Origin: Ectobacillus funiculus
GTDB lineage: Bacteria > Bacillota > Bacilli > Bacillales > Bacillaceae_G
Length of the DNA stretch: 56,405 nucleotides
Assembly: GCF_004138295.1 (NCBI RefSeq)
Contig: NZ_SCFM01000045.1
Coordinates: 1-56,405, forward strand
Direction of reading: 5' to 3'
Position 1 is the first letter of the stretch; the number at the start of each line of letters is the position of its first letter. This document shows, one piece after another, positions 641 to 56,200 of this stretch. Under the pieces are notes generated by a model. That model searched no databases, was not told where the DNA came from, and was given only the letters and a program-made list of their open reading frames with translations. The position numbers and the translations under genes are program-made.

Positions 641-746
641 ACACTGTAAGAAAGTATAAATTTCCAGCGAGACGCGAATTTGACGTAGCCAGAAATTTTA
701 AGAATACAGTATAAGTAGGGCTCGTCAATCGGCGAGTTTTCTTTAT
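641..746 (+). repeat. Dispersed terminator-associated repeat, copy 1
   Basis: Begins ACACTGTAAGAAAGTATAAA and ends GGCGAGTTTTCTTTAT. This copy lacks about 30 bases of the linker and second hairpin, so the sequence jumps from GTAGGGCTCG straight into the last hairpin. It lies between convergent genes, directly after the terminator of the left one. Confidence 0.85.
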
Positions 747-804
747 TTGGAAAATGAAAAAGAGTTGGTTCAAAATTCAAACCAACTCTTTTATGTCTTT
801 TTAA

Positions 805-2352
805 TTAACCTAATGTTTTTCTTTGAAAGTCTGCAATGGCATTGTATTCTTCATTCAGCTTACGGGAAACACGCAGGAAAATAGGAACTAATTCACGATA
901 TACTTCAACATGCTCTTTTATCGGACGATGTGTATGGGTAGCTCCTACCATGTTGGAAACAACACGAAGTGAGTCAATTTCTTTTAAGGCATATAGGCCA
1001 AGAATAGCTGCACCAAGGCAAGAACTTTCAAAGCTTTCTGGAACGGTCACTTCTTGATCGAAAATATCTGCCATCATTTGGCGCCATAGTTCTGAGCGTG
1101 CAAAGCCGCCGGTTGCTTGTACCTTCGTCGGCGCACCAATCTGCTCCTCAAGTGCGAGCAAAACGCTATATAGGTTGAAAATTACACCTTCTAATACAGC
1201 ACGAATCATATGTTCTTTTTTGTGATGTAAGGTTAGACCAAAGAAGGAGCCTCTAGCATTGGCATTCCACAACGGTGCGCGTTCTCCAGCTAAATAAGGG
1301 TGGAATAGCAATCCATCTGCACCGGGAGAAACACGTGCTGCAATTCTAGTGAGTACTTCGTATGGATCAACCCCTAAGCTTTTAGCTGTTTCCACCTCAG
1401 CTGCGGCGATTGTATCCCGCACCCAGCGGAATGTCATGCCGCCATTGTTTACAGGGCCGCCAATGACCCAGTGGTCTTCGGTTAAGGCATAACAGAAGAT
1501 GCGTCCTTTTGGATCTGTAACAGGGCGGTCTGTTACGGTACGAATCGCTCCGCTTGTCCCAATTGTTACAGCTACAACTCCAGGATCAATAGCGTTTACA
1601 CCAAGATTGGATAGCACACCATCATTTGCGCCAAGGACAAAAGGAGTAGAAGGAAGAATTCCTAATTCCTTTGCGATATCTTCGTTAAGTCCCTGCAAGT
1701 AGTGAGTGGTAGGAGCGAGCTTAGATAGGTGATCTCTTGTAATGCCGGCCACCTCAAGTGCTTCCTCATCCCAATCTAGGTTGTGTAAGTTCATCATCCC
1801 AGTTGCTGAAGCGATGGAGTGATCGACTACAAATTCTTTAAACAGTTGATAAAATACATACTCTTTAATGGAAATAAACTTAACAGAATTTGCGAAAATC
1901 TCTGGTTTTTCTTCCTTCATCCAGCGGATTTTGCATAACGGCGACATCGGGTGAATCGGTGTTCCCGTACGCATGTAAATGCTATGACCATTCCACTTCT
2001 CTTTAATCGCTTCTGCCCACTTTGTGCTTCTGTTATCCGCCCAAGTGATACAATTTGTAAGAGGCTTTCCTGATTCATCAATTGCAATGACACTGTGCAT
2101 AGCTGAGCTGAATGAAACGCAAAGGAGATCCTCCGGTTGAATGGAGCTTTTTCCAATCGCTTCTTTAATCGTTGCTAGTACTGCTTCGTAAATTTCTCCA
2201 GGGTTTTGCTCAGCAGTTAAAGGCGTTGGAGTTAATAAGGGATATTCAACTGTGTGGTGGGTAATTACTGTGCCGTCCTTTGAGAAAAGGACCGCTTTCG
2301 TACTTGTTGTTCCAATATCAACACCTAACATATATCCAGTTTGCTTCATCAT
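805..2352 (-). CDS. gntK: Gluconokinase (FGGY family)
   Basis: ATP-dependent phosphorylation of D-gluconate to 6-phosphogluconate, feeding the pentose phosphate pathway in the cytoplasm. The 515-aa length matches Bacillus GntK. The N-terminus carries the FGGY phosphate-binding motif GVDIGTTSTKAVLF (residues 10-23). The middle has GANDGVLSNLG with the probable catalytic Asp and then VTIGTSGA; the C-terminal half has the ATP-binding segment ATGGFARSELWRQMMAD. The start ATG follows AGGAGAC at a good distance (a second ATG follows at once). The gene lies 69 bases downstream of the gluconate permease in the same direction, so the two are probably one operon. Xylulokinase-type FGGY proteins are similar, but the permease next door supports gluconate. 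Confidence 0.9.
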   Translation of the reverse strand: MMKQTGYMLGVDIGTTSTKAVLFSKDGTVITHHTVEYPLLTPTPLTAEQNPGEIYEAVLATIKEAIGKSSIQPEDLLCVSFSSAMHSVIAIDESGKPLTNCITWADNRSTKWAEAIKEKWNGHSIYMRTGTPIHPMSPLCKIRWMKEEKPEIFANSVKFISIKEYVFYQLFKEFVVDHSIASATGMMNLHNLDWDEEALEVAGITRDHLSKLAPTTHYLQGLNEDIAKELGILPSTPFVLGANDGVLSNLGVNAIDPGVVAVTIGTSGAIRTVTDRPVTDPKGRIFCYALTEDHWVIGGPVNNGGMTFRWVRDTIAAAEVETAKSLGVDPYEVLTRIAARVSPGADGLLFHPYLAGERAPLWNANARGSFFGLTLHHKKEHMIRAVLEGVIFNLYSVLLALEEQIGAPTKVQATGGFARSELWRQMMADIFDQEVTVPESFESSCLGAAILGLYALKEIDSLRVVSNMVGATHTHRPIKEHVEVYRELVPIFLRVSRKLNEEYNAIADFQRKTLG

Positions 2353-2421
2353 TATAGTCTCCTATCTATGTAGCATAGATCATCTATAAAAGGTTAGAGG
2401 CCTTTTGCTACATTCAAATTG

Positions 2422-3765
2422 TTAAGTAATAAATAAACTAATCAAAAATACAACTACAAATGCTGTGAGGGAGCTTAATGTTTCCATGATTGTCCAAGAG
2501 CGAAGGGTATCTTTTACATCCAATCCAAAATATCGATTGATAAGCCAAAAGCCGGAATCGTTTACATGAGATGCAATGGTGGCACCGGCCGCTATGGAAA
2601 TCGCAATTAATCCTAGAATGGGTCCTTCTAAACCAAGATTGATTATAAAGGGAGATAATAAGCTGCCGGATGTTACCATGGCAACTGTTGCAGAGCCCTG
2701 GGCAATTCTTACAGCGGATGCTATTAGAAATGCAAGGACAATGGGCGGAAGAGAAGAATGTTCCATTGAATTAGCTAATATCTTTCCTACGCCAGAATCC
2801 ATTAGAACCTGCTTAAATACACCGCCAGCACCTGTGACAAGAATAATCATGCCTGCCGGCTCCAGGGCTTTGCTAGCAATCATTTGTACCTCTTGCTTTG
2901 AATATCCGCGTTTAACACCTAAAAAGTAAAATACAAGGATTGTTGAAATAAGCAAAGAGACAAATGGGTGGCCTAAGAATGCAAGGAATGTGCGGATAAT
3001 ATTTCCTTCTTGCAAGACAACCTTTGAAACTGTATTCAAAAGAATCAAAAGTAATGGCACTAAAATAATATTTGCAATGAGTCCAAAGCTTGGCAGTTCT
3101 TGATCATCTTCAATTTCCTCTACATTTATATAGCGCGGAACAGCCACATGTATTTTTTTTGCAATGTATTTTCCAAATAATGGTCCTGCTATTATCATCG
3201 CCGGCAAGCCTGCGATGGTTCCAAATAAAATGACCCATCCAAGATCGGCACCAATTAAATTGGCAACAACAATGGGACCGGGAGTTGGCGGAATGAAGCT
3301 ATGGGTAATAGCCAGGCCGGCAAACAGCGGAATACCATAATAGAGAAGGGAGCGTCCGGTTTTCCTTGCCAGGCGGTAAACAATGGGGACTAAAACAACA
3401 AAGCCGACATCAAAAAAGACGGGAATCCCTACGAGAAACCCTGTAAAACCTAATGCCCAAGGAATTTTGTCTTCTCCAAACTTTTTTATTAGGGTTTTGG
3501 CAAGACGCTCTGCTCCGCCTGATACCTCAAGCATTTGGCCAAACATAGCCCCTAGACCAACGACAACTGCTACAAAACCGAGTGTTTCACCCATACCTTG
3601 TTGCATGGAAGCAATAACCTCATGTAAAGGCATTCCTGCAGCTACTCCAACAAGCAAACTAACAAGAAGAAGTGCGACAAACGCGTGAAGCTTCGTTCGA
3701 ATAACTAAGAATAGAAGTAATGATACCCCAGCGGCAGTGGCTAGAATAGGTATAAATTCGGACAT
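2422..3765 (-). CDS. gntP: Gluconate permease (GntP family)
   Basis: Proton-coupled gluconate uptake across the cytoplasmic membrane. The 447 aa are almost entirely hydrophobic segments, about 12-14 predicted helices, as in the GntP family. Typical stretches are GFLVGIPVFFDVGFVVLVP, FIPPTPGPIVVANLIGADLG and ARIAQGSATVAMVTSG-like sequence near residue 360. The start codon follows CGGAGGACTTACC. It is the first gene of the gntP-gntK pair. A minus-strand promoter, a cre site and RpiR-type boxes lie in the divergent region at 3870-3970. The substrate is assigned mainly from the neighbouring gluconokinase; other GntP members carry idonate or glycerate. Confidence 0.88.
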   Translation of the reverse strand: MSEFIPILATAAGVSLLLFLVIRTKLHAFVALLLVSLLVGVAAGMPLHEVIASMQQGMGETLGFVAVVVGLGAMFGQMLEVSGGAERLAKTLIKKFGEDKIPWALGFTGFLVGIPVFFDVGFVVLVPIVYRLARKTGRSLLYYGIPLFAGLAITHSFIPPTPGPIVVANLIGADLGWVILFGTIAGLPAMIIAGPLFGKYIAKKIHVAVPRYINVEEIEDDQELPSFGLIANIILVPLLLILLNTVSKVVLQEGNIIRTFLAFLGHPFVSLLISTILVFYFLGVKRGYSKQEVQMIASKALEPAGMIILVTGAGGVFKQVLMDSGVGKILANSMEHSSLPPIVLAFLIASAVRIAQGSATVAMVTSGSLLSPFIINLGLEGPILGLIAISIAAGATIASHVNDSGFWLINRYFGLDVKDTLRSWTIMETLSSLTAFVVVFLISLFIT

Positions 3766-3873
3766 GGTAAGTCCTCCGATATCTTATAGAGTGTTACTGC
3801 ATTAGGGCCTCTAAGTGCTCCACTCCAATCCCCCTTCCGATTCTTCATACAGCCATAAGCGTATTTGTTTCGG

Positions 3874-3896
3874 TTTCTCCTCGAGCCGAGGAGAAA
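3874..3896. promoter_or_regulatory. Perfect 10-bp inverted repeat in the gntP leader
   Basis: Arms TTTCTCCTCG and CGAGGAGAAA around AGC. It lies just downstream of the predicted gntP start of transcription, so it would fold as a hairpin in the 5' leader of gntPK or act as a DNA-binding site. It partly overlaps the first RpiR-like box. Confidence 0.55.
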
Positions 3897-3914
3897 AATT
3901 TTTCTGATATGTTC

Positions 3915-3942
3915 ATTATACGAAAAAAAATTCCTTGTGCAA
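3915..3942 (-). promoter_or_regulatory. gntP promoter
   Basis: On the minus strand, -35 TTGCAC and -10 TATAAT with a 16-base spacer. The -35 overlaps the cre site. Confidence 0.65.
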
Positions 3943-3952
3943 TCGTTTCCAA
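3938..3952 (-). promoter_or_regulatory. cre site (CcpA)
   Basis: TTGGAAACGATTGCA on the minus strand fits the cre consensus WTGNAARCGNWWWCA with one mismatch. It overlaps the gntP -35 and suggests glucose repression of gluconate use. Confidence 0.65.
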
Positions 3953-4024
3953 GAAAAAAATTTCTTTGTTAAAGGATTTTAGTTATAATATAGAGTAAGA
4001 TGCTGTGGGAAAGGGGTGAAAAAA

Positions 4025-4930: not shown

Positions 4931-5069
4931 CACATTGTAAGAGAGTATAATTTTCCAGTTGGAGATGAATTCAGCGTAGTCGGAAATTTTAGGAGTACAG
5001 TGTAAGTGCAACTACACCTCTGTCTTCACCAAAGGTGAGGGCTTGCCAATCCGCGATTTTTCTTTATAT
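4931..5069 (+). repeat. Dispersed terminator-associated repeat, copy 2
   Basis: Full-length copy starting ACATTGTAAGAGAGTATAA and ending GCGATTTTTCTTTAT. The second hairpin reads CACC-AAA-GGTG instead of GCCC-AAG-GGC, a paired change in both arms. Confidence 0.85.
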
Positions 5070-12193: not shown

Positions 12194-12499
12194 ATGAATA
12201 TTTTATTATGCTGCGCTGCAGGAATGTCTACAAGTTTACTAGTTACAAAAATGGAGAAAAGTGCACAAGAGCAAGGTAAAGAGTATAAGATCTGGGCTGT
12301 TTCAGGTGACTCTGTACGAAATCATGTTGATCAAGCAGACATTTTGTTGTTAGGCCCACAAGTACGCTATATGCTTCCTCAATTAAAAAAATTAGGAGAA
12401 GAGAAAAGTATTCCGGTTGATGTGATTAACTCAGTTCACTATGGAACTTGTAACGGTGCAGAGGTAGTGAAATTTGCAGAACAATTAGTTTCTAAATAG
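12194..12499 (+). CDS. licB: PTS EIIB, lactose/cellobiose family
   Basis: 101-aa cytoplasmic phosphocarrier that passes phosphate from EIIA to the incoming beta-glucoside. [16 protein letters not shown] contains the active-site Cys; by alignment with LicB from memory it is Cys7, the second of two adjacent cysteines. [11 protein letters not shown] is typical of the family. The start follows CAAGGAGGAATTTTAC. It is the first gene of the licBCAH-like operon and lies downstream of the LicR palindrome and two cre sites. The likely substrates are oligomeric beta-glucosides or cellobiose; diacetylchitobiose is an alternative. Confidence 0.92.
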
Positions 12500-12512
12500 G
12501 AGCGTGAATGCT

Positions 12513-13847
12513 GTGAGCAAATTTACAGATGTATTAGAAAATAAGGTTATGCCAATCGCTGGTCGTATCGCAGGGCAACGTCATTTACAAGCCCTGCGCG
12601 ATGGAATCGTACTCTCTATGCCCCTTATCATCATCGGTTCTGTTTTCTTAATTCTGGCGAACTTGCCGATACCAGGCTATAACGAATTTATGGCAGGAAT
12701 ATTTGGAGATCAATGGGCAACGAAGCTTTCATATCCTGTAGGAGCAACATTCGACATTATGGCGCTTATTGCCGCATTTGGGATTGCCTATCGATTAGCT
12801 GAAAAATATGGAGTAGACGCACTATCAGCAGGAGCTATTTCTGTTGCTGCTTTCTTACTGGCAACGCCGTACAAAGTATCCTTCCTTGCAGAGGGAGCAA
12901 AGGAAGCTATTTTGGTAGATGGTGGAATTCCTACTGCTTTAATGGGAAGTAAAGGATTATTCGTTGCAATGCTTATCGCAATGCTTTCTACTGAAATTTA
13001 TCGTTGGATTATTCAAAAGGATATCATCATTAAAATGCCAGATGGAGTACCGCCATCTGTAGGAAAATCATTTGCCGCACTCATTCCTGGATTTGCAGTT
13101 ATTACATTGATTTGGGTACTACGTTTACTTGTTGAACAAACAGATTTTCAAAGCTTACACAATATTATCGGAGAAGTATTAGGAAAGCCGCTTGGTATCC
13201 TAGGTGGAACATTAGGTGGAAGTATTGTCGCTGAGCTAGTTGTTGTATTGTTATGGTCTTGCGGCTTGCACGGATCTAACATTGTAAGTGGTGTAATGGC
13301 ACCGATTTGGTATGGCGCAATGGATGAAAACCGTTTAGCCTTCCAAAATCATGAGGCATTACCGAATATTGTAACACAGCAATTTTTTGATAACTTTATT
13401 AACATTGGTGGAAGCGGTGCTACTTTGGCGCTTGTAGTAGCTATGGTTCTACGTTCTAGAAGTACGCAAGGAAAGCAATTAGGAAAATTAGCAATTGGAC
13501 CCGCTATTTTTAATATCAATGAACCGATTATCTTTGGTATGCCGATTGTTATGAACCCTATGCTGATTATCCCGTTCGTCTTAACACCAATTCTTACAGT
13601 AATCGCAACATATATTGGAATGTCAACGGGCTTAGTTGCTAAAACAGCGGGAATTGCAGTGCCTTGGACAATGCCGCCGCTTCTATCAGGATATTTAGCT
13701 ACAGGCGGGAAAATTTCCGGGGCTGTGATGCAGCTGGTAAATATCGCGATTGCGTTTTGTATGTACTATCCATTCTTCAAAATGTGGGATAAGAAGAATT
13801 TCGTTGAAGAAGGCGGAAGTGATGCAACAGGTAATAAGATTGCATAA
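12513..13847 (+). CDS. licC: PTS EIIC, lactose/cellobiose family permease
   Basis: 444-aa membrane channel of the beta-glucoside PTS, with about ten hydrophobic segments. Motifs include GQRHLQALRDGIVLSMPLII at residues 22-41, SCGLHGSNIVSG, and NINEPIIFGMPIVMNPMLI (glucoside-binding region) around residue 335. I chose GTG 12513, which has AGGAG ten bases upstream; the in-frame GTG at 12504 touches that ribosome binding site. It follows the EIIB gene by 13 bases. A 9-bp hairpin (13873-13896) separates it from the EIIA gene. It is the only EIIC in the window and so must serve both EIIB-EIIA pairs, if both are used. Confidence 0.92.
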   Translation: MSKFTDVLENKVMPIAGRIAGQRHLQALRDGIVLSMPLIIIGSVFLILANLPIPGYNEFMAGIFGDQWATKLSYPVGATFDIMALIAAFGIAYRLAEKYGVDALSAGAISVAAFLLATPYKVSFLAEGAKEAILVDGGIPTALMGSKGLFVAMLIAMLSTEIYRWIIQKDIIIKMPDGVPPSVGKSFAALIPGFAVITLIWVLRLLVEQTDFQSLHNIIGEVLGKPLGILGGTLGGSIVAELVVVLLWSCGLHGSNIVSGVMAPIWYGAMDENRLAFQNHEALPNIVTQQFFDNFINIGGSGATLALVVAMVLRSRSTQGKQLGKLAIGPAIFNINEPIIFGMPIVMNPMLIIPFVLTPILTVIATYIGMSTGLVAKTAGIAVPWTMPPLLSGYLATGGKISGAVMQLVNIAIAFCMYYPFFKMWDKKNFVEEGGSDATGNKIA

Positions 13848-13872
13848 GCTCTTTTCAAACAATTTGTCTATA

Positions 13873-13896
13873 TCAGGCAGGAGACAACCTGCCTGA
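13873..13896 (+). promoter_or_regulatory. Intercistronic hairpin between EIIC and EIIA genes
   Basis: Arms TCAGGCAGG and CCTGCCTGA around AGACAA, without a T-tract. More likely an mRNA-stabilising or processing hairpin than a terminator. Confidence 0.5.
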
Positions 13897-13944
13897 CATA
13901 CATTTTATCTGTGTCAAATTGATTTCATAAAGGAGGAATATATC

Positions 13945-14274
13945 ATGAGCAACTTAGAAGAAGTGATTTTTCAAATCATCCTTCATGCCGGAAATGGAAG
14001 AAGCTCCTCAATGGAAGCTATCGCAGCGGCGAAACAGGGTAATTTTGCAGAAGCAAGAGAGAAGCTGAAGGAAGCTGGAGAGGAGCTCAATGGGGCTCAT
14101 CATTTCCAAACATCCTTAATTCAAGGGGAGATTCGCGGGGAGAAGACAGAAATTTCTCTTCTTATGATTCATGCGCAAGACCATTTAATGAATGCGATCA
14201 CAATGAAGGATCTAGCAACAGAGATGGTAGATATGTATGAGCTAATAAAGTTACCCCAAGGTGTCAGTGTTTGA
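13945..14274 (+). CDS. licA: PTS EIIA, lactose/cellobiose family
   Basis: 109-aa helical, probably trimeric phosphocarrier that takes phosphate from HPr to EIIB. The phosphorylation His is in [11 protein letters not shown] (His76 by family analogy). Other family features are AKQGNFAEAREKLKEAGEEL and [14 protein letters not shown]. The start follows AAAGGAGGAATATATC. It belongs to the same operon as the EIIB and EIIC genes. The second EIIA at 16337 is a close paralogue. Confidence 0.92.
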   Translation: MSNLEEVIFQIILHAGNGRSSSMEAIAAAKQGNFAEAREKLKEAGEELNGAHHFQTSLIQGEIRGEKTEISLLMIHAQDHLMNAITMKDLATEMVDMYELIKLPQGVSV

Positions 14275-14280
14275 GCAATT

Positions 14281-14357
14281 TAGCTATGAATGTAGACGAA
14301 GACGATTTGAGTAACATGTTTTCTCCGGGATGTGCTCATAGCTAGGGCTCTTCCCGG
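14281..14357 (+). other. Two interleaved inverted repeats between EIIA and GH4 genes
   Basis: Stem 1: TAGCTATGA (14281-14289) with TCATAGCTA (14337-14345). Stem 2: CCGGGA (14325-14330) with TCCCGG (14352-14357). The arms interleave, so the two stems are alternatives or form a pseudoknot-like fold in the operon mRNA. Function unknown. Confidence 0.35.
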
Positions 14358-14423
14358 TGTTATAACGCATAAACTGGTTGGAATCACTATATACATACCA
14401 CTTATTTAAAGAGGAGGATTACT

Positions 14424-15767
14424 ATGGAAAACAATACATTGAAACAAGGTATCAAAATTGTAACGATTGGTGGAGGATCAAGCTATACACCGGAATTAGT
14501 AGAAGGTTTTATTAAACGCTATGAGGAACTGCCTGTACGTGAATTATGGTTAGTAGACGTAGAAGAAGGAAAAGAAAAGTTAGAAATTGTAGGAAACCTT
14601 GCTAAGCGTATGATTGAAAAAGCAGGTCTAGATATCGAGGTACATTTAACGTTAAATCGAAGAGAGGCCTTGCCTAATGCAGACTTTGTTACAACTCAGT
14701 TTCGTGTAGGATTACTTGATGCTCGTGCGAAGGATGAAAGAATTCCTTTAAGCCATGGAGTATTAGGACAAGAGACAAATGGTCCAGGTGGACTATTTAA
14801 AGGATTACGCACAATTCCAGTTATCTTGGATATTGTAAAGGATATTAAGGAATTATGTCCAAATGCTTGGTTAATTAACTTCACAAACCCGGCTGGTATG
14901 GTAACAGAGGCTGTTCTTCGTTATACAGATCATAGGAAAATCGTTGGTTTATGTAATGTTCCGATTGGAATTGAAATGGGGATTGCAAAGCTGCTAGATG
15001 TGGAGCATTCCCGCATTCGTATTGATTTCGCCGGTCTAAACCATATGGTATACGGATTAGATGTGTATGTAGATGGAGTAAGTGTAAAAGATAAAGTGAT
15101 TGAAATGCTATCAAATCCAGAAAACAGCAGCTTTGTTAAAAATGTAGAAGGACAAGGATGGGAACCGGAATTCATTCGAGCGCTCAACGCTTTAACTTGT
15201 CCATATCATTTGTACTACTACAAAAAAGATGAAATGCTTCAAAAAGAGCTGAAAAACTTTAAAGAGGGTACAACAAGAGCAGAAGTGGTCAAGCAGCTTG
15301 AGGATGAATTATTTGAGCTGTACAAAGATCCTAATTTGGCTGTGAAGCCGCCTCAATTAGAGCAACGCGGCGGGGCTTACTATAGCGATGCAGCTGTTCG
15401 TCTAATTTCTTCTATCTATAATGATAAACGTGATATTCAACCGGTTAATACGATTAATAACGGTGCGATTGCAAGCATTCCACATGACTCTGCTGTTGAG
15501 GTGAGCTGTGTAATTACAAAAGAAGGTCCAAAGCCAATCATTAGCGGAGATTTACCAGTTGCAGTCCGAGGACTCGTACAGCAAATCAAGTCCTTTGAAC
15601 GTGTAGCTGCCGAAGCAGCTGTAACAGGCAGCTATGATACAGCTTTACTTGCTATGACAATTAACCCGCTTGTTCCTTCCGATAAGGTTGGTAAAAAAAT
15701 CTTGGATGAAATGCTAGAAGCACATAAAGATTATTTACCACAATTTTTTGCAAAGGTTGAAGCATAA
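14424..15767 (+). CDS. licH: 6-phospho-beta-glucosidase (GH4)
   Basis: 447-aa cytoplasmic hydrolase of phosphorylated beta-glucosides delivered by the PTS. GH4 enzymes use NAD and a divalent metal. The N-terminus has the Rossmann motif IVTIGGGSSYTPELVEG (residues 12-28). Further family motifs are GQETNGPGGLFKGLRT, INFTNPAGMVTEA, VGLCNVPIG (metal-binding Cys) and FAGLNHMVYG (metal-binding His). The start follows AGAGGAGGATTACT. The lic-type PTS context supports 6-phospho-beta-glucosidase over the alpha- or galactosidase members. A terminator follows and separates it from the second PTS gene set. Confidence 0.92.
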   Translation: MENNTLKQGIKIVTIGGGSSYTPELVEGFIKRYEELPVRELWLVDVEEGKEKLEIVGNLAKRMIEKAGLDIEVHLTLNRREALPNADFVTTQFRVGLLDARAKDERIPLSHGVLGQETNGPGGLFKGLRTIPVILDIVKDIKELCPNAWLINFTNPAGMVTEAVLRYTDHRKIVGLCNVPIGIEMGIAKLLDVEHSRIRIDFAGLNHMVYGLDVYVDGVSVKDKVIEMLSNPENSSFVKNVEGQGWEPEFIRALNALTCPYHLYYYKKDEMLQKELKNFKEGTTRAEVVKQLEDELFELYKDPNLAVKPPQLEQRGGAYYSDAAVRLISSIYNDKRDIQPVNTINNGAIASIPHDSAVEVSCVITKEGPKPIISGDLPVAVRGLVQQIKSFERVAAEAAVTGSYDTALLAMTINPLVPSDKVGKKILDEMLEAHKDYLPQFFAKVEA

Positions 15768-15772
15768 TAGAG

Positions 15773-15818
15773 AGGCTGGTTCCGGTACGAATCAAATTGT
15801 ACCAGGACCAGCCTTTTT
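15773..15818 (+). terminator. Terminator of the first PTS operon
   Basis: Long stem with arms AGGCTGGT and ACCAGCCT and an inner GGTAC/GTACC stem, then TTTTT. Repeat copy 4 starts a few bases later. Confidence 0.85.
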
Positions 15819-15823
15819 GTACC

Positions 15824-15857
15824 ACTGCAGGAAGGTATAAGTTTCCAGACAGTAGTT
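15824..15857 (+). repeat. Dispersed terminator-associated repeat, copy 4 (truncated)
   Basis: Only the head remains (ACTGCAGGAAGGTATAAG, then TTTCCAGACAGTAG). The right arm and later hairpins are missing. It sits directly after the operon terminator. Confidence 0.6.
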
Positions 15858-15872
15858 ATCTTGTATTTAAAC

Positions 15873-15892
15873 TTTCCGTTACATAACGGAAA
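15873..15892. promoter_or_regulatory. LicR-type operator palindrome, site 2
   Basis: Perfect arms TTTCCGTT and AACGGAAA separated by ACAT, upstream of the second EIIB gene. Matches site 1 at 12064. Confidence 0.7.
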
Positions 15893-15906
15893 AAGCATAT
15901 GTTTAA

Positions 15907-15925
15907 TTGTAAGCGTTTTTATAAT
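15907..15925 (+). promoter_or_regulatory. cre site overlapping the -10 of the second PTS operon
   Basis: TTGTAAGCGTTTTTA fits the cre consensus with one mismatch and overlaps TATAAT at 15920-15925. No good -35 is present at 17 bases, which fits an activator-dependent promoter. Confidence 0.55.
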
Positions 15926-15989
15926 AGAATGAAATCATCAAAAAAACACAATTTCATCTCAATTATTAAATAAATGGAGGAATCCTTAT

Positions 15990-16301
15990 ATGAATATTTT
16001 ATTATGTTGTGCAGCAGGAATGTCGACTAGCTTATTAGTAACGAAAATGGAGAAAAGTGCAGAAGCGCAAGGGAAGTCGTATAAAATCTGGGCAGTTCCA
16101 GGGGATGTAGTGAAAAATCATATTGATAGTGCTGACGTGTTATTGCTAGGTCCGCAAGTGCGTTTCTTGCTGCCACAGCTGAAACAGCTAGGGCAACAGA
16201 AGGGGGTTCCAGTTGATGTAATTAATCCTGTTCACTATGGAATGTGCAATGGGGAAGAAGTAGTGAAGGTTGCAGAGCAATTAACAGCTAAAATAGAATA
16301 A
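15990..16301 (+). CDS. Second PTS EIIB, lactose/cellobiose family
   Basis: 103-aa paralogue of the EIIB at 12194: [19 protein letters not shown] is identical, followed by the same GPQVRF-type motif and [14 protein letters not shown]. The probable phosphorylated Cys is retained. The start follows ATGGAGGAATCCTTAT. It begins a short operon (EIIB-EIIA-HPr) with its own LicR-type palindrome and cre site and no EIIC. It may form a second, differently tuned phosphorelay onto the same EIIC or onto one encoded elsewhere. It probably arose by local duplication of the first operon. Confidence 0.9.
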
Positions 16302-16336
16302 GCGAGTTTGCTCATAGTTCAAAGGAGGAAAAGGTT

Positions 16337-16663
16337 GTGGGAAATTCAGAAGAAGTTGTCTTTCAAATTATCCTTCATGGGGGAAATGGTAAAAGCTCAG
16401 CAATGGAGGCTATTGCAGCAGCAAAGAAAGGGGATTTTGCAACTGCAAGAGAAAAGATTCAAGAGGCTGGCGAGGCATTAAATCAGGCTCATCATATACA
16501 AACTTCTTTAATTCAAGGTGAAATTAGAGGAGAAAAGAACGAGATTTCTCTTTTAATGGTTCATGCTCAAGACCATTTAATGAATGCGATTATGATAAAG
16601 GATTTAGCAATGGAATTTGTAGAGTTGTATGAGTATGTTACAACCTCTAAGGATCGGGTATAA
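16337..16663 (+). CDS. Second PTS EIIA, lactose/cellobiose family
   Basis: 108-aa paralogue of the EIIA at 13945, with the phosphorylation His in [11 protein letters not shown] and the same [20 protein letters not shown] segment. The start is GTG 16337, seven bases after AAAGGAGG. It lies 35 bases downstream of the second EIIB, in the reverse gene order relative to the distant first EIIA, so the EIIC gene was lost or never copied. It probably accepts phosphate from the HPr encoded next. Confidence 0.9.
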
Positions 16664-25486: not shown

Positions 25487-25518
25487 AAGAGGGGGTACTC
25501 AAAGTAGTCCCCCCTCTT
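25487..25518. terminator. Terminator downstream of the alpha-glucosidase gene
   Basis: Arms AAGAGGGGGTACT and AGTAGTCCCCCCTCTT with a two-base bulge. On the minus strand it lies after the alpha-glucosidase stop. On the plus strand it lies directly before repeat copy 6. Confidence 0.65.
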
Positions 25519-25519
25519 T

Positions 25520-25617
25520 CGCTTTAAGAAAGTATAAGTTTCCCGATCGAAGTTAATTCGACATCATGGAAAATTTTAGGGATGAAGTGTAAGTGCAACT
25601 ACGCTTCTGTGCTCGCT
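25520..25617 (+). repeat. Dispersed terminator-associated repeat, copy 6 (3' truncated)
   Basis: GCTTTAAGAAAGTATAAG through TTTTAGGGATGAAGTGTAAG, then CAACTACGCTTCTG; lost after that. The break lies eight bases from the stop codon of the minus-strand alpha-glucosidase gene. Confidence 0.78.
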
Positions 25618-25624
25618 TATGGTG

Positions 25625-27295
25625 TTACATCATTAAATAGACACGGGTTTCGTAAGGTCTTAGGGTGAGACGCTTAGGCAGAGCTTTATCCACAACTACA
25701 TAGTTATTCATAACAAGTTCTGAAACAGAATGACTGAAACGATTCGGGACTTTAAAACTAGTTTCTGCTTCGCTAAAGTTGCAAATGATTAGGGCTTTTT
25801 GGTTTCCTAATGTGCGAGTGTATACGAATAGCTTCGGATGATTTGGCAATAACAATTCATAAGTGCCATATACAAACACTGGGTTTTCTTTTCGCAAATG
25901 AATCAAGCTTTTATAAAAATGTAAAATAGAGTCAGGATCCTTTAATTGTTCTGTTACGTTAATTTCTTTATAATTTTGATTTACACCTAACCAAGTTTGG
26001 CCCGCGGTTGTAAATCCTCCCATGTTGGTTGCATCCCATTGCATCGGAGTACGGGAATTATCTCGACCTTGTTTCCAAACGACTTCCATAATCTCCTCAT
26101 GGGAACGGCCTTTTGCCGTTTCAACCTTATAGTAGTTAATCATACCGACATCATTGTATTCGTTAATAGACGGAAACTGGACATTCGTCATCCCAATTTC
26201 CTGGCCCTGATAAATAAATGGTGTGCCCTTCATGAGAAAATATAAAGCGCCTAGCATTTTGGCACTCTCTTTCCAATACTCCTGATCATTTCCCCAGCTT
26301 GAAACCCTGCGTGGCTGATCATGGTTTTCGATGAAGAGGGCGTTCCAACCTCTACCTTCTAAACCAGTTTGCCATTTGGTTAATGCTTTTTTTAATGCAC
26401 GTACGTCGACAAGATCTTCTGAATCCTTATCCCAAAGACCTAGAAATTCAAACTGAAAAACCATATTGAAATGGCCATTTTCTTCACCAACCCATTTTTC
26501 GGCATCATCAATCCCTACACCATTTGCTTCTCCAACAGTCATAACATCGTAGTTCTTGATTGTTTTTTGGGAAAGTTCTGTTAGCCATGTATCAATCCCC
26601 TCAACATTCATCATATAAGGAAAGCAGGGAACGTAATCTAAGTTATTTGGGTTCGGCATATCCGGGAAGCCTGGCTCCTTTTTAATATGGGAAATTGCAT
26701 CAACACGGAAACCATCAATCCCTTTTTCCAGCCACCAATTGACCATATCATGTAAAGCATTTCTTACTTCAGAGTTCTCCCAATTTAGGTCAGGCTGTCG
26801 TTCGGAGAAGATGTGCATAAAATATTGTTCTGTTTCTTCATCATACTTCCAAGCAGAACCACTGAAAATAGATTCCCAGTTGTTTGGTTCCTTGCCGTTT
26901 TTGCCATCCCTCCAGATATACCAATCACGCTTTGGATTATCTTTAGAGGAGCGAGATTCAATAAACCAAGGGTGTTCATCGCTTGTATGATTGATGACCA
27001 AATCAAGAATCAATCGCATTCCGCGTTGATGAACTTCTTCTAGCAGTTCATCAAAGTCCGCTAGCGTACCGAATTCCTCCATAATGTCCTGATAATCTGA
27101 AATATCATAGCCATTATCGTCATTTGGAGACTTATACATAGGACATATCCAAATAACATCAATTCCTAATTCTTTTAAGTAATCTAATTTTGAAAGAATT
27201 CCCTTGAGATCCCCAATTCCATCCCCATTACTATCCATAAAGCTTCGAGGATAAATCTGATATACGACACTTTCCTTCCACCATTTTTTCTCCAT
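25625..27295 (-). CDS. malL: Alpha-glucosidase, GH13 (maltase type)
   Basis: 556-aa cytoplasmic hydrolase of maltose and short alpha-glucans. GH13 regions: LILDLVINHTSDEHPWF, region II GIDGFRVDAISHI (nucleophile Asp), YDVMTVGEANGVG (acid/base Glu) and FIENHDQPRRVSSWG (third Asp). Region II reads RVDAIS; from what I know of Bacillus enzymes, Ala after the nucleophile favours alpha-1,4 bonds and Val favours alpha-1,6, so a maltase is more likely than an oligo-1,6-glucosidase. The start ATG follows GAGAAAGGAGAAGAAAT. A cre-like box lies 179 bases upstream. No maltose transporter is nearby. Confidence 0.9.
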   Translation of the reverse strand: MEKKWWKESVVYQIYPRSFMDSNGDGIGDLKGILSKLDYLKELGIDVIWICPMYKSPNDDNGYDISDYQDIMEEFGTLADFDELLEEVHQRGMRLILDLVINHTSDEHPWFIESRSSKDNPKRDWYIWRDGKNGKEPNNWESIFSGSAWKYDEETEQYFMHIFSERQPDLNWENSEVRNALHDMVNWWLEKGIDGFRVDAISHIKKEPGFPDMPNPNNLDYVPCFPYMMNVEGIDTWLTELSQKTIKNYDVMTVGEANGVGIDDAEKWVGEENGHFNMVFQFEFLGLWDKDSEDLVDVRALKKALTKWQTGLEGRGWNALFIENHDQPRRVSSWGNDQEYWKESAKMLGALYFLMKGTPFIYQGQEIGMTNVQFPSINEYNDVGMINYYKVETAKGRSHEEIMEVVWKQGRDNSRTPMQWDATNMGGFTTAGQTWLGVNQNYKEINVTEQLKDPDSILHFYKSLIHLRKENPVFVYGTYELLLPNHPKLFVYTRTLGNQKALIICNFSEAETSFKVPNRFSHSVSELVMNNYVVVDKALPKRLTLRPYETRVYLMM

Positions 27296-30935: not shown

Positions 30936-31053
30936 TATACTGTAGGAAAATATACAATTCCAGCTTGAAGTCATTTGACGCAGTCGGAAATTGTCGAAAT
31001 ACAGTGTAAGGCAACTACATCTCTGTTTCTGCCAATGATGAGCTTTCTTTAGT
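30936..31053 (+). repeat. Dispersed terminator-associated repeat, copy 8 (diverged)
   Basis: TACTGTAGGAAAATATACAA, then TTCCAGCTTGAAG, with right arm GGAAATTGTCGAAATACAGTG. The left arm change AAATTT to ACAATT is matched by AAATTT to AAATTG on the right, so pairing is kept. The last hairpin is mostly lost. Confidence 0.75.
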
Positions 31054-31177
31054 TTTTGTAGTCCTTTTTTGCTTGTAATAATGAACATTTTCTAAAAAGA
31101 AAACGTTTTTGTTAAGGAATTATCGAAAATTTGACCCGTTTAGGAAAATTTTAACGAATAAAAGTTCAAAAAAGCTA

Positions 31178-32619: not shown

Positions 32620-32654
32620 AAAAAGCCCTCAGTTTTTAAAACTGAGGGCTTTTT
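32620..32654 (+). terminator. glnA terminator
   Basis: AAAAAGCCCTCAG and CTGAGGGCTTTTT arms with further A/T pairing in between. Repeat copy 9 begins directly after it. Confidence 0.9.
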
Positions 32655-32768
32655 GACACTTTAAGAAAATATAAATCTCTAGCCAGAAGACAATTCGACG
32701 TAGTGAGAATTTTAGGAATAAAGTATAAGTGCAGCTACGCCTCTGTCTTCGCCCGAAGGCAGGGCTCG
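32655..32768 (+). repeat. Dispersed terminator-associated repeat, copy 9
   Basis: GACACTTTAAGAAAATATAA through TTTTAGGAATAAAGTATAAG to GCCCGAAGGCAGGGCTCG. Outer stem ACTTT/AAAGT. The last hairpin is missing; an unrelated hairpin (32771-32815) takes its place. Confidence 0.85.
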
Positions 32769-32770
32769 AT

Positions 32771-32815
32771 TATGAACGAATAGCCTGGGAGCTGTAGGCA
32801 GTTTGTTCGTTCATA
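32771..32815. other. Compound hairpin at the end of repeat copy 9
   Basis: Arms TATGAACGAA and TTCGTTCATA enclose a second stem GCCT/AGGC. No T-tract. Could be a small mobile element or a recombination scar. The following 32816-33006 is AT-rich without a recognised element. Confidence 0.45.
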
Positions 32816-35270: not shown

Positions 35271-35405
35271 ACAATGCAGGAAAGCATAAATTTTCAGCTA
35301 GGAGTCATTCGACGTAGTCGAAAATTTTAGGGCTACAGTGTCAGGGCAGTTTCGCCTCTGTCTTCGCCCAAGGGCAGGGCTCGCCAATTGACGAATTTTC
35401 TTTAC
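35271..35405 (+). repeat. Dispersed terminator-associated repeat, copy 10
   Basis: ACAATGCAGGAAAGCATAAA to GACGAATTTTCTTTAC. The inner stem is TTTTC/GAAAA in place of TTTCC/GGAAA. Its last bases contain the stop codon of the minus-strand reductase gene (35402-35404). Confidence 0.85.
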
Positions 35406-36920: not shown

Positions 36921-37056
36921 ACATTGTAGGAAAGTATAAATTTCCAGCTAGAAGTGAATTCGAAGTAGTCGGAAATTTTAGGAATACAGTATAAGTGCAA
37001 CTATGCCTTTGTCTTCGCCCAAGGGCACGGATCGCCAGTCGGCGAGTTTTCTTTAT
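36921..37056 (+). repeat. Dispersed terminator-associated repeat, copy 11
   Basis: Full length, from ACATTGTAGGAAAGTATAAA to GGCGAGTTTTCTTTAT. Lies between divergent genes, directly after a T-tract. Confidence 0.88.
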
Positions 37057-43931: not shown

Positions 43932-43963
43932 AAGCTGACCTGTATGTATAGGTTGGTTTTTTT
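43932..43963 (+). terminator. Terminator of the PucR-type gene
   Basis: CTGACCT and AGGTTGG arms (with G-T pairs) around GTATGTAT, then a run of T. Repeat copy 12 begins at its end. Confidence 0.6.
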
Positions 43964-44098
43964 TTACTGGAGGAAAGTATAAATTTCTAGCTAGAAGTGA
44001 TTCGACGTAGTCGGAAATTTTAGGAATACAGTATAAGTAGGGCTACGCCTCTGTCTTCGCCCGAGAGCAGGGCTTGCCAATCAGCGAGTTTTCTTTAG
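43964..44098 (+). repeat. Dispersed terminator-associated repeat, copy 12
   Basis: Full length, from TTACTGGAGGAAAGTATAAA to AGCGAGTTTTCTTTAG. Lies between the regulator and the semialdehyde dehydrogenase gene. Confidence 0.88.
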
Positions 44099-47194: not shown

Positions 47195-47266
47195 AGAAAG
47201 AAAATTTGCTGATTAGTGAGCTGTTAGACGAAGACTTACACTGTATTTTTAAAATTTCCCGCAGTG
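47195..47266 (-). repeat. Dispersed terminator-associated repeat, reverse and shortened copy 16
   Basis: Read on the minus strand: CACTG, then GGGAAATTTTAAAAATACAG, TGTAAGTCTTCG and a decayed last hairpin with ATTTTCTTT. The loop of the first hairpin and the linker are deleted. On its own strand it again follows directly behind the terminator at 47267-47303. Confidence 0.6.
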
Positions 47267-54144: not shown

Positions 54145-54204
54145 TTTGGATAACATAGCATAATAGAAAGTTATTTGCCCTTGATAACTAAAGCAACGAC
54201 AGGA

Positions 54205-54250
54205 CAAACAGCCCCTTTCACCTCTTAGAAATGAAAGGGGCTGTTTGATT
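54205..54250. terminator. Terminator of the alpha-galactosidase operon
   Basis: Perfect 16-bp arms CAAACAGCCCCTTTCA and TGAAAGGGGCTGTTTG around 11 bases. Repeat copy 13 follows directly. Confidence 0.88.
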
Positions 54251-54251
54251 T

Positions 54252-54374
54252 GCGCTGTAAAGAAAGTATAAATTTCTAGCTGGAAGCCAACTCGACGTAG
54301 TGAGAAATTTTAGGAATACAGTATAAGTAGGGCCACGCCTCTGTCTTCTCCCAAGAGCAGGGCTCGCCAATCGG
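54252..54374 (+). repeat. Dispersed terminator-associated repeat, copy 13 (3' truncated)
   Basis: GCGCTGTAAAGAAAGTATAA through TTTTAGGAATACAGTATAAG to GGCTCGCCAATCGG. The inner stem is TTTCT/AGAAA. It breaks off in the last hairpin, two bases before the stop codon of the minus-strand transporter gene. Confidence 0.85.
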
Positions 54375-54376
54375 AG

Positions 54377-55645
54377 TCATATATGTTCTTCATGAGAAGC
54401 TGCCGCTCGCTCTGGTACACGTACCAGTAATAGTCCCCCTAGGATAAACAGTACCACTAAACTGAATACGCCGCTGTTTGTATTTCCAGTCATTTGTGCT
54501 GTCACACCAACAAGTGCAGGGCCGATAATAGCTGCGAATTTTCCGCAAATATTATAAAAACCGAAAAATTCATTTGCTGCTTCTTTCGGAACAAGACGAG
54601 CAAAGTAAGCGCGGCTTAACGCTTGGATGCCGCCCTGAGAGGTAGCAACAAGCATAGCAAGAATCCAAAAGTCTAATGTTGTTTTAAGAAAATATGCATA
54701 GATGCAAATGATTATATACATGATAATGCCGACATATAGCATTATTTTTGTATTAAACCTTTCTGCAAGCCTTCCATATAATAATGCAAACGGACAAGCA
54801 ACAACCTGTGTGACGAATAGAATAATTAATAGATTTGTAGAGCTGATCCCTAGGTCTGTTCCGTATGCGGTGGACATTGTAATGATTGTATCCAAACCGT
54901 CAATATAAAAGAAATAAGCGAGCAGGAAAAGAAAGAGGGGCTGCTGCTGCTTTATATTCCGAAAGGTTCCAAATAATCGTCTAAAGCTATTTATAATTGG
55001 ATTTGGCTCTTGCGCGATATAATGACGCTGTTCCACATTTTTTAGCATGGGAATAGTGAACAATCCCCACCAGAGCGCGGTAATAGCAAATGCAGCTTGA
55101 CTTGCAATAGTAACGCTTAACGGGAGTACGCCTTTCTGTGCCAGAATAATGAGGGCGATGGATAAAATAAATGGAATTGTGCTCCCGATATAGCCCATTG
55201 CAAACCCTCTAGCGGAAATTCGATTCATCCGTTCTTCACTCGTTACGTCAACGAGAAATGCATCGTAGAAAATATTAGCTCCTGCAAAGCCGATCACGGC
55301 ACACATATAACAAATCAGCAGCACAATCCACTGCTTTCCAGGGATGATTGCCAGCAGTGTTGTAAAGATTATTCCTAAGAAAAAGAAGAAGGTGAAGAAC
55401 CTTTTCTTAAAATGACGATAGTCAGCAATTGTTCCTAATATAGGAGCGAGAATTGATACAAGCAACGTAGCAATTGAATTGGCGTATCCCCAATATGCAG
55501 TCGAGTTTGCAGCCGTTACCCCTGCGTTCTTTGCTGCTGCCTTAAAGTATATGGGGAAGATAGCTGTTGTGATAATGAGGGAGTAAGCTGAATTTGCCCA
55601 ATCGTAGAAAATCCAGCTTTTTTCTTGCTTCGATATTCCATTCAT
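54377..55645 (-). CDS. MFS transporter, UMF1/Atg22-like family
   Basis: 422 aa with about 11-12 membrane segments. The UMF1 family start is KQEKSWIFYDWANSAYSLII (near residue 5); later comes IGFAGANIFYDAFLVDVTSE, then RMNRISARGFAMGYIGSTIP, which carries the MFS-type loop. ATG 55645 follows GAGGTGTTCTTG; GTG 55654 is an in-frame alternative that lies inside that site. The substrate is unknown; the Atg22 relatives of fungi export amino acids from vacuoles. Single gene; its 3' end abuts repeat copy 13. Confidence 0.86.
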   Translation of the reverse strand: MNGISKQEKSWIFYDWANSAYSLIITTAIFPIYFKAAAKNAGVTAANSTAYWGYANSIATLLVSILAPILGTIADYRHFKKRFFTFFFFLGIIFTTLLAIIPGKQWIVLLICYMCAVIGFAGANIFYDAFLVDVTSEERMNRISARGFAMGYIGSTIPFILSIALIILAQKGVLPLSVTIASQAAFAITALWWGLFTIPMLKNVEQRHYIAQEPNPIINSFRRLFGTFRNIKQQQPLFLFLLAYFFYIDGLDTIITMSTAYGTDLGISSTNLLIILFVTQVVACPFALLYGRLAERFNTKIMLYVGIIMYIIICIYAYFLKTTLDFWILAMLVATSQGGIQALSRAYFARLVPKEAANEFFGFYNICGKFAAIIGPALVGVTAQMTGNTNSGVFSLVVLFILGGLLLVRVPERAAASHEEHI

Positions 55646-55696
55646 CAAGAACACCTCGCTTCTTCTATTTTGGATGTAACGTTATTAAGTACTTTT

Positions 55697-55832
55697 TACA
55701 CTTTAAGAAAGTACAAATTTCTAGCTGGAAGACCATTCGACGTGGTGAGAAATTTTAGGAACAAAGTATAAGTGCAACTAAGCCTTTGTCTTCGCCTAAG
55801 GGCAGGGCTTGCCAATCTGCGGGTTTTTTTAA
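55697..55832 (+). repeat. Dispersed terminator-associated repeat, copy 14
   Basis: Full length, from ACACTTTAAGAAAGTACAAA to TGCGGGTTTTTTTAAT. Outer stem ACTTT/AAAGT, inner stem TTTCT/AGAAA. Confidence 0.87.
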
Positions 55833-56062
55833 TTGATCCGATCAGGTTGTTCCTTTTATGGAGCGCGCCAACCTGCCGAAGGGGGACTGAGTGGCGAATA
55901 AGTAAAATTGTACTACGTTCCCAGAAAGGAAATGGCTCTTTTACAAAAGTGTTACAGCACCTTAATACTCCTGCGGACAAATAAGGGATGAGGGGCAGAG
56001 GTTTATGGAAAAGTAAGCGAGGGATATATGTTTTGATGTATATGCATCCCCCTATTAATATT
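55833..56062. other. Intergenic stretch between repeat copies 14 and 15
   Basis: No gene, promoter or RNA that I can support. A small palindrome GATGTATATGCATC lies just before copy 15. Confidence 0.3.
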
Positions 56063-56200
56063 TACTCTTTAAGAGAGTATAAATTTCTAGTTAGAAGACC
56101 ATTCGACGTAGTGAGAAATGTTAGGAATAAACTATAAGTACAACAACACCTCTGCTTCGCCTAAAGGCAGAGCTTGCCAATCGGCGAGCTTTCTTTATAT
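56063..56200 (+). repeat. Dispersed terminator-associated repeat, copy 15
   Basis: Full length, from TACTCTTTAAGAGAGTATAA to GGCGAGCTTTCTTTATAT. Its end lies about 45 bases before the first rrn promoter. Confidence 0.87.

What the first reader, a model, noticed from the sequence alone, without database searches (positions are those of the whole stretch)
641..56200. Unrecognised dispersed ~135-bp repeat family with 16 copies in 56 kb
The same non-coding element occurs at 641, 4931, 11771, 15824 (partial), 24664, 25520, 27556, 30936, 32655, 35271, 36921, 43964, 54252, 55697 and 56063 on the plus strand and, shortened, at 47195 on the minus strand. The core reads about ACACTGTAAGAAAGTATAAA, TTTCTAGCTAGAAG, CATTCGACGTAGTCGG, AAATTTTAGGAATACAGTGT, AAGTGCAACTACGCCTCTG, TCTTCGCCCAAGGGCAGGG, CTCGCCAATCGGCGAG, TTTTCTTTAT. 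One copy per 3.5 kb would mean a very large genomic family if the density holds. No transposase or terminal inverted repeat accompanies it, so it would be mobilised in trans or be an old expanded element. I do not recognise it as a named repeat (the bcr repeats of B. cereus came to mind, but I cannot match it to them).
Basis: partly seen in the sequence, partly recalled or inferred. Interest (0 to 1): 0.85.

Follow-up and report, generated by a model that had tools for sequence, protein, structure and literature searches.

The report
Small mobile repeat homing to terminators
A 134-letter non-coding repeat found in many Bacillus-type bacteria seems to copy itself into the spot just after the stop signals of genes, without the flanking duplications that most jumping DNA leaves, and what moves it is unknown.

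Summary
The repeat is real: 16 copies in the window, 183 in 587 kb of the host genome. Stretches taken at round coordinates carry 14 in 140 kb, so roughly 300-900 genome-wide. A covariance model finds it in 59 of 249 genomes of the order, 36 of 105 genera. A unit runs from CAC..TTAAGAAAGTATAA through a covarying hairpin and a conserved core to its own terminator-like hairpin plus TTTTCTTTA. Copies favour the spot directly 3' of intrinsic terminators, in sense: a hairpin precedes 63 of 108 copies with a T-run against 48 of 500 ordinary intergenic T-runs. One clean occupied/empty comparison, five genomes against four, shows precise insertion without target-site duplication. New copies also land on the 3' end of older ones, giving exact tandem arrays. 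It behaves as a non-autonomous mobile element homing to terminators, as group IIC introns do, but contains no ribozyme. Four candidate mobiliser families show no consistent association, so the enzyme is unidentified. Rfam and the paper searches gave no match; kinship with bcr1 of B. cereus is not excluded. New variant of a known kind.

The parts
600..631 (+). terminator hairpin directly 5' of copy 1
   Evidence: -22.7 kcal/mol, followed by TTTCTTTTTA
641..746 (+). copy 1, both ends present, internal deletion of about 30 nt
   Evidence: nhmmer 80 bits
4901..4926 (+). terminator hairpin 5' of copy 2
   Evidence: -14.7 kcal/mol
4932..5067 (+). copy 2, full length
   Evidence: 126 bits
11773..11906 (+). 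copy 3, full length
   Evidence: 144 bits; no hairpin called upstream
15772..15815 (+). terminator hairpin 5' of copy 4
   Evidence: -28.2 kcal/mol
15823..15856 (+). copy 4, only the 5' 34 nt left
   Evidence: 15 bits
24658..24778 (+). copy 5, degenerate ends
   Evidence: 100 bits; no hairpin called upstream
25491..25513 (+). terminator hairpin 5' of copy 6
   Evidence: -10.7 kcal/mol
25520..25650 (+). copy 6, 3' end degenerate
   Evidence: 97 bits
27557..27692 (+). copy 7, full length
   Evidence: 144 bits; no hairpin called upstream
30938..31066 (+). copy 8, 3' end degenerate
   Evidence: 92 bits; no hairpin called upstream
32624..32650 (+). terminator hairpin 5' of copy 9
   Evidence: -18.4 kcal/mol
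32656..32786 (+). copy 9, 3' end lost
   Evidence: 119 bits
35223..35266 (+). terminator hairpin 5' of copy 10
   Evidence: -24.6 kcal/mol
35271..35405 (+). copy 10, full length
   Evidence: 128 bits
36889..36916 (+). terminator-like hairpin 5' of copy 11
   Evidence: -8.0 kcal/mol
36921..37056 (+). copy 11, full length, used as query
   Evidence: 142 bits; 70 matches in own genome in a search that scored only part of its candidates
43932..43959 (+). terminator hairpin 5' of copy 12
   Evidence: -11.3 kcal/mol
43965..44097 (+). copy 12, full length
   Evidence: 137 bits
47197..47278 (-). copy 13, 5' half lost
   Evidence: 24 bits
54207..54245 (+). terminator hairpin 5' of copy 14
   Evidence: -23.1 kcal/mol
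54252..54387 (+). copy 14, 3' end degenerate
   Evidence: 126 bits
55698..55832 (+). copy 15, full length
   Evidence: 135 bits; no hairpin called upstream
56064..56198 (+). copy 16, full length
   Evidence: 122 bits; no hairpin called upstream

Best explanation
The repeat is a non-autonomous mobile element of about 130-139 nt (134 in this genome's arrays) that homes to intrinsic transcription terminators. SHOWN: the unit is CAC...CTTTA; about half of the copies sit 3' of a hairpin and T-run in the sense orientation; at the cleanest compared site it interrupts a T-rich run with no target-site duplication; the host keeps T-run plus A, G or T on the left and mostly T on the right; its two hairpins covary across genera; its own 3' end, a GC hairpin followed by TTTTCTTTA, resembles the target, and unlike copies stand exactly end to end. 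INFERRED: an enzyme supplied in trans recognises a hairpin followed by a T-run, either as folded single-stranded DNA or at the terminating transcript, and joins the element there. Landing behind a gene's terminator and bringing a second one would make insertion nearly harmless, which would explain hundreds of copies. Identical units inside arrays would then come from unequal recombination. The enzyme is not identified; I rate a single-stranded-DNA (HUH-like) route and a route shared with group IIC introns about equally likely.
For: Hairpin of -8 kcal/mol or better directly upstream: 59 of 113 own-genome copies (tandem copies left out) against 7 of 112, 6 of 111 and 3 of 112 in shifted windows, and 12 of 15 in G015 against 1, 0 and 0 of 15; 63 of 108 copies with a T-run against 48 of 500 intergenic T-runs without the element, p about 1e-26; 47 of 87 distinct copies from other genomes and named contigs against 4 of 86 and 1 of 87 in shifted windows (9 of the 87 by script, 10 by eye, stand behind another copy's own right hairpin, 7 of them among the 47; some of the 87 are orthologous). 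With a hairpin, 51 of 61 upstream ORFs run in the same direction; without, 27 of 55. Junctions of copies with intact ends (30 left, 97 right): T 100% at -3, T 87% at -2, A/G/T at -1, T 77% at +1. Empty sites: present in 5 genomes, absent in 4 at one site, terminator hairpin conserved in all nine, the 7-base T-rich run split 3+4; present in G015, absent in 11 genomes at another. Arrays with unlike neighbours at 85-87% identity followed by near-identical units in 2 of 4 arrays examined; arrays also in G026, spacing 124. Covariation: 14 of 19 pairs with changes on both sides, 93.3% of cells paired against 36-57% when slid by 1-3 columns. Spread: 59 of 249 genomes.
Against: Mobility is inferred from presence/absence at few sites; the nearest dispersed copies are only 95% alike, so no very recent jump was seen. 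In the no-hairpin class (55 of 116 own-genome copies) orientation is random, and over all 163 own-genome copies counted, tandem ones included, the upstream ORF is co-directional in 104, with 30 copies antisense to both neighbours; so the hairpin is favoured, not required. At the clean site the element stands 9 nt beyond the stem's own TTTT, in a second T-rich run. The other readable empty site has T-rich diverged flanks and a copy with an atypical end, so by itself it does not exclude a short duplication; a third site was too diverged to read. No autonomous partner was found in the loci held, and none of four enzyme families tracks the element.
Confidence: 0.78

Rival explanations
1. It is moved as folded single-stranded DNA by a HUH enzyme of the IS200/IS605 or REP-transposase kind: the 5' target TTT(A/G/T) stays in the host, the element carries its own cleavage tetranucleotide TTTA at the 3' end, and subterminal hairpins guide cleavage.
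For: No TSD at the clean site and no clear TIR, hairpins near both ends with covariation, conserved TTTA at the right end, host T-run at the left, exact tandem junctions. The element's right end resembles its target.
Against: No Y1_Tnp match in element-rich G015 (3 contigs), G010, G077, G141, G245; only two pieces in the window's own genome, one broken by stops, one covering 39 of 121 positions. Y1_Tnp is present in 18 of 23 element-rich and 18 of 23 element-poor genomes. A target hairpin and a preferred T at +1 are not part of the IS200/IS605 rule as I recall it.
Confidence: 0.3
2. It is an RNA satellite of group IIC introns: the same terminator target is used, with the integration machinery of the intron supplied in trans.
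For: Of the group II introns looked at in element-bearing genomes, six (L205, L206, L207, L211, L212, L213) stand at hairpin-T-run|intron sites, and L216 holds two in tandem (calling them IIC is my reading from site and size, Rfam names them D1D4-1/-3). Reverse transcriptase matches: 17 of 23 element-rich against 8 of 23 element-poor genomes, p 0.017. PMC4424553 and PMC7923331 (passages) give terminators as the IIC target.
Against: A second panel gave 21 of 36 against 21 of 36; both together p 0.14. Six of 23 element-rich genomes have no RVT_1 match; G198 with 36 RVT_1 matches has one element match. The two G015 introns seen in several copies do not follow a clear terminator. The element has no Rfam group II match and no GUGCG 5' end. 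Hairpin 1 shows no excess of G-U over A-C pairs (11 against 10).
Confidence: 0.27
3. It is a site-specific recombination cassette: a circular form joined CTTTA-CAC recombines with T-rich sites, as suggested in print for bcr elements with their TTTAT motif.
For: The tandem junction CTTTA|CAC equals what a circle would carry; TTTAT at the right end of many copies; [quoted passage not shown]
Against: No shared core sequence beyond T at both junctions in the clean empty-site comparison (TTT|CAC and CTTTA|TTTT). Large serine recombinases: 15 of 24 element-rich, 15 of 23 element-poor, none in own genome. Tyrosine recombinases were not tested.
Confidence: 0.15
4. It is not mobile now and not selfish: a family of backup terminators or structured 3' RNAs kept by selection after old spread.
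For: Ends in a GC hairpin with T-run; core conserved across genera; nearest dispersed copies 95% alike at best.
Against: Patchy spread (59 of 249 genomes), many copies in the window's genome and no match in two congeners G001 and G002, presence/absence at the same site among sister species, many decayed copies (51 of 183 lack an end).
Confidence: 0.12

Closest known systems
Group IIC introns (bacterial class C)
   Same: Insert directly after the hairpin and T-run of intrinsic terminators in sense, with T after the insertion in the cases seen; tandem copies seen once in the same order (L216).
   Different: The introns seen here are about 1.8-2.2 kb with ribozyme and reverse transcriptase; the repeat is 134 bp, has neither, and has different ends.
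bcr1-bcr3 repeats of the Bacillus cereus group
   Same: Size class 100-400 bp, mostly chromosomal and intergenic, many copies, TTTAT motif, suspected mobility (PMC6542083, PMC3446304, passages).
   Different: Reported as restricted to the B. cereus group; this family was found in 36 of 105 genera sampled, and none of the 26 named stretches with the exact core is titled as a B. cereus group member. bcr sequences could not be read, so homology is untested directly.
SPRITE, BOX and RUP of Streptococcus pneumoniae
   Same: Short interspersed intergenic repeats; SPRITE looks like a rho-independent terminator and is enriched near 3' ends of genes (PMC3049150, passages).
   Different: BOX and RUP have TIRs and TSDs; SPRITE has 30 copies, a short AAAA/TTTT TIR and no comparable empty site. 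The passages seen do not describe insertion behind an existing terminator.
PATEs/REPs moved by IS200/IS605-type transposases (recalled, no call)
   Same: No TIR/TSD, subterminal hairpins.
   Different: No Y1 transposase tracks the element; a hairpin in the target is not part of that rule as I recall it.

Membership tests
Group IIC intron | Catalytic domain V / group II RNA structure | tested here: not met
   No Rfam group II match in the window or around copy 11, while group II introns of related genomes score 41-168 bits
Group IIC intron | Insertion after terminator hairpin and T-run | tested here: met
   favoured in about half of the copies, not in all
Group IIC intron | Reverse transcriptase in cis or available in trans | tested here: inconclusive
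   None in cis; 38 of 59 element-bearing against 29 of 59 other genomes have RVT_1, p 0.14
Classical MITE (DDE-type) | Terminal inverted repeats | tested here: not met
   Ends CAC.TTAAGAAAG and TTTTCTTTA are at most weakly complementary (sequence); the repeat finder reported no inverted pair of 40 nt or more, a coarse test
Classical MITE (DDE-type) | Target-site duplication | tested here: not met
   7-base T-rich run split 3+4 at the clean site; one further site compatible but T-rich and diverged, one unreadable
IS200/IS605-type non-autonomous element | Y1 transposase in genomes with recent copies | tested here: not met
   No match in G015, which carries a copy absent from G007, its closest relative
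IS200/IS605-type non-autonomous element | Subterminal hairpins, no TSD, fixed cleavage sequence at right end | tested here: met
   (no-TSD from one clean site)
IS110/IS1111 derivative | DEDD transposase available | tested here: inconclusive
   17 of 24 element-rich, 12 of 23 element-poor; none in own genome
bcr1-bcr18 | Sequence homology to bcr consensus | tested here: inconclusive
   bcr papers not held; indirect: blastn of one copy against 72,556 plasmids hit only CP053689.1
bcr1-bcr18 | Restricted to the B. cereus group | tested here: not met
   Named hosts are Cytobacillus, Neobacillus, Gottfriedia, Evansella, Metabacillus, Fredinandcohnia, Scopulibacillus, Peribacillus, Bacillus sp. and B. 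litorisediminis
Any Rfam family | Score at or above gathering | tested here: not met
   0 matches in the window

The most novel reading that the evidence does not exclude
A widespread class of bacterial SINE-like elements that home to transcription terminators by a new integration route: neither a ribozyme nor any of the usual transposases, recognising the structure hairpin plus T-run, with several sequence families (A and B in this genome) sharing the same ends.
Probability: 0.3. Interest if true: 0.88.

Novelty: new variant of a known kind. Interest (0 to 1): 0.7.

Why it matters
Short repeats without an identified mobiliser are an old puzzle in bacterial genomics. This family offers a concrete insertion rule (hairpin, T-run, one T on the far side, no duplication), a wide host range and a safe-haven logic: land behind a stop signal and bring another. 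It makes testable whether terminator homing is reached by something other than group IIC introns, and it suggests that some double terminators in Bacillales are transposed copies.

Tried and rejected
Rfam at gathering over the window and at E-value 5 around one copy: nothing, and chance matches only. Autonomous partner by split left/right halves: 7 left-right pairs on one strand. Three have gaps over 1 kb (L013, L009, L028): L013 and L009 are separate truncated copies around ordinary genes, and the L028 copy keeps its own right end, with only minus-strand ORFs and one 133-aa plus-strand ORF in between. L021 is a copy interrupted by an unrelated MITE-like insert, L069 one with an unidentified insert, L020 an internal deletion; L134 was not looked into. 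The copy beside the broken IS200-like gene in L073 is chance as far as I can tell. Reverse-transcriptase association: significant in the first panel, gone in the second. Y1, IS110, large serine recombinase: no association. Caveats of the panels: 'element-rich' means 9 or more matches, where at most 13 were scored per genome, plus G015; the element-poor panel includes G003, with one weak match, and G005, G006 judged alone; the 36 poor genomes are those with no match or not among the 59 listed, whose list of empty genomes was cut, and the 36 bearers are mostly low-copy. Viral contigs: 0 exact core matches; phages: none. G-U against A-C as a test of RNA or DNA folding: 11 against 10 in hairpin 1, 23 against 16 in the inner five pairs of the right hairpin, not decisive. 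Segmental duplication: excluded by spread. Paper searches that returned nothing I recognised as this repeat.
Full report
OBSERVATION. A profile of 14 of them finds 169 copies in 447,540 bases made of the window plus 20 stretches chosen because they held matches, and 14 copies in 140,000 bases taken at round coordinates, five of the seven stretches from one contig, two stretches empty. The latter figure gives about 540 copies in 5.45 Mb (Poisson range about 300-900); the window is about three times denser. Of these 183 matches 132 keep both ends, 30 lack the right end, 16 the left end, 5 both.

ANATOMY. The unit in this genome's arrays is 134 nt, from CAC to CTTTA: CAC-T-(G/T)TAAGAAAGTATAAATT, hairpin 1 with an 8-bp stem, a core close to AAGTATAAGTGCAACTACGCCTCTGTCTTCGCC, a short spacer, the right hairpin CTCGCC-AATC-GGCGAG and TTTTCTTTA. 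On 102 distinct copies from other genomes aligned to the covariance model, 93.3% of cells at 19 pairs form standard pairs and 14 pairs show changes on both sides (shuffles: mean 7.0, 0 of 500 as high); sliding by 1-3 columns drops pairing to 36-57%. That alignment was fitted to the structure, so it leans towards it; on the unfitted alignment of 28 sequences 6 of 19 pairs show double changes. RNAalifold on an earlier set of 40 gave only a weak overall fold. Whole stems are exchanged in the right hairpin: CTCGCC/GGCGAG, CTCGGC/GCCGAG, CTTGGC/GCCAAG.

WHERE IT SITS. In the window 9 of the 15 plus-strand copies have a hairpin of -8 kcal/mol or better followed by a T-run directly 5' (the minus-strand copy, which lacks its 5' half, was not tested). 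In the own genome 59 of 113 copies against 7 of 112, 6 of 111 and 3 of 112 in windows shifted by 60, 120 and 200 nt; in G015 12 of 15 against 1, 0 and 0 of 15 (own tandem copies left out). As the T-run alone could explain this, I compared copies with a T-run (108 of 118; 63 with hairpin) with 500 of 3,569 intergenic T-runs without the element (48 with hairpin) (p about 1e-26). Of 87 distinct copies from other genomes and named contigs 47 have the hairpin against 4 of 86 and 1 of 87 in shifted windows. Tandem copies were not removed there: 9 of the 87 by script, 10 by eye, stand behind another copy's right hairpin, 7 of them among the 47, and some of the 87 are orthologous. Orientation: with a hairpin the upstream ORF runs the same way in 51 of 61 cases, without it in 27 of 55 (ORFs are mechanical, 80 aa or more). 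Over 163 own-genome copies, tandem ones included, it is 104 against 59, with 30 copies antisense to both neighbours.

HOW IT INSERTS. At a site in Gottfriedia-type genomes the element is present in G011, G013, G010, G018, G004 and absent in G015, G007, G008, G014, with the terminator hairpin conserved in all nine. The empty sites read AA, seven mostly T bases, C; the occupied ones have three T before CAC (or its variants) and four T after CTTTA, so nothing is duplicated and the ends are exact. The element stands 9 nt beyond the stem's own TTTT. Of the other three genomes looked at, G017 is rearranged there, G012 diverged, and G009 lacks an upstream match. At a second site G015 has the element and 11 other genomes do not; this fits an insertion without duplication but the flanks are T-rich and diverged. 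A third site could not be read to the base. Junctions in other genomes, from copies with intact ends: T at -3 in 30 of 30, T 87% at -2, A, G or T at -1; right side T in 77% of 97. In the own genome the base before CAC is A in 62%, G in 21%, T in 13% of 118.

ARRAYS. Head-to-tail arrays have the exact period 134 here; in G026 three starts are 124 apart. In two of four arrays examined the first units are only 85-87% like the next ones while later units are 98-100% alike: separate insertions onto the 3' end of an older copy, then, I infer, recombinational expansion. Several arrays begin with a copy that has lost its 5' part.

SPREAD. One copy as DNA query: 24 of 60 related genomes, 12 of 45 genera. 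Covariance model: 59 of 249 genomes, 36 of 105 genera, E up to 1e-5, own genome included. An exact 33-nt core pattern in the genome collection: 26 stretches, titled Cytobacillus, Neobacillus, Gottfriedia, Evansella, Metabacillus, Fredinandcohnia, Scopulibacillus, Peribacillus, Bacillus sp. and B. litorisediminis (placement in Bacillales is recalled). One plasmid, no phage, no viral contig with an exact 27-nt core. The congeners G001 and G002 have no match. That genus g2 is Gottfriedia is inferred from equal contig lengths.

FAMILY B. The own genome has a second repeat of about 149 bp, 13 matches in 587 kb, with a similar left end (TAAGAAAGTATAA) and a GC hairpin with TTTTCTTA at the right, but another body; at least 5 of the 13 stand directly behind a family A right end. 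This suggests one machinery moving several bodies with common ends.

WHAT MOVES IT. Y1_Tnp: 18 of 23 element-rich and 18 of 23 element-poor genomes, none in G015, two pieces in the own genome. RVT_1: 17 of 23 against 8 of 23, then 21 of 36 against 21 of 36 in fresh genomes; together p 0.14; two in the own genome, both with group II intron matches. IS110: 17 of 24 against 12 of 23. Large serine recombinase: 15 of 24 against 15 of 23. The own genome, with 919 first-look candidates against at most 114 in the other 60 genomes, has no match to the last two. Group II introns at terminators occur in the same order, as known from the literature for IIC (PMC4424553, PMC7923331, passages read), but reverse transcriptase presence does not track the element. 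Dispersed copies are at most 95% alike, so the mobiliser may have been lost from many hosts; that would blur any association.

KNOWN OR NEW. Rfam: none. Papers: passages of PMC6542083, PMC3446304, PMC2267715, PMC7923331, PMC10969869, PMC3049150, PMC4424553; none of these passages describes this repeat, and none of the eight paper searches listed in Tried and rejected returned a paper that I recognised as describing it. PMC2267715 lists an uncharacterised Bacillus halodurans family, Bhal-1 (74 bp), whose sequence I did not see. The bcr1 papers themselves are not held, so kinship with bcr1-bcr3 remains open; the shared TTTAT motif is suggestive. I therefore call it a new variant of the known kind 'short non-autonomous bacterial repeat', with terminator homing and duplication-free insertion as its distinguishing features.

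Noticed in passing
L015:11149-11297, L016:12601-12749, L018:3345-3498 and others (own genome): Second repeat family B, about 149 bp, 13 matches in 587 kb, sharing the ends of family A but with another body; at least 5 stand directly behind a family A right end.
   Followed up: partly
L021:10428-10563: A separate MITE-like insert with TATATAAGTTGA/TCAACTTATATA ends interrupts a family A copy.
   Followed up: no
L216 (G141 contig 78): Two group II introns in direct tandem, the second directly at the 3' end of the first, the same habit as the repeat.
   Followed up: no
G198: 36 RVT_1 matches in one 5.5 Mb genome of 2 contigs, a large reverse transcriptase expansion, with only one element match.
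   Followed up: no
window 12194-16660: PTS IIB and IIA genes of the lactose/cellobiose type are present twice, around one EIIC gene and a family 4 glycosidase gene; the copies are 75-76% alike over 300 nt.
   Followed up: partly
G021: 31 IS110-type transposase matches in one genome without an element match.
   Followed up: no
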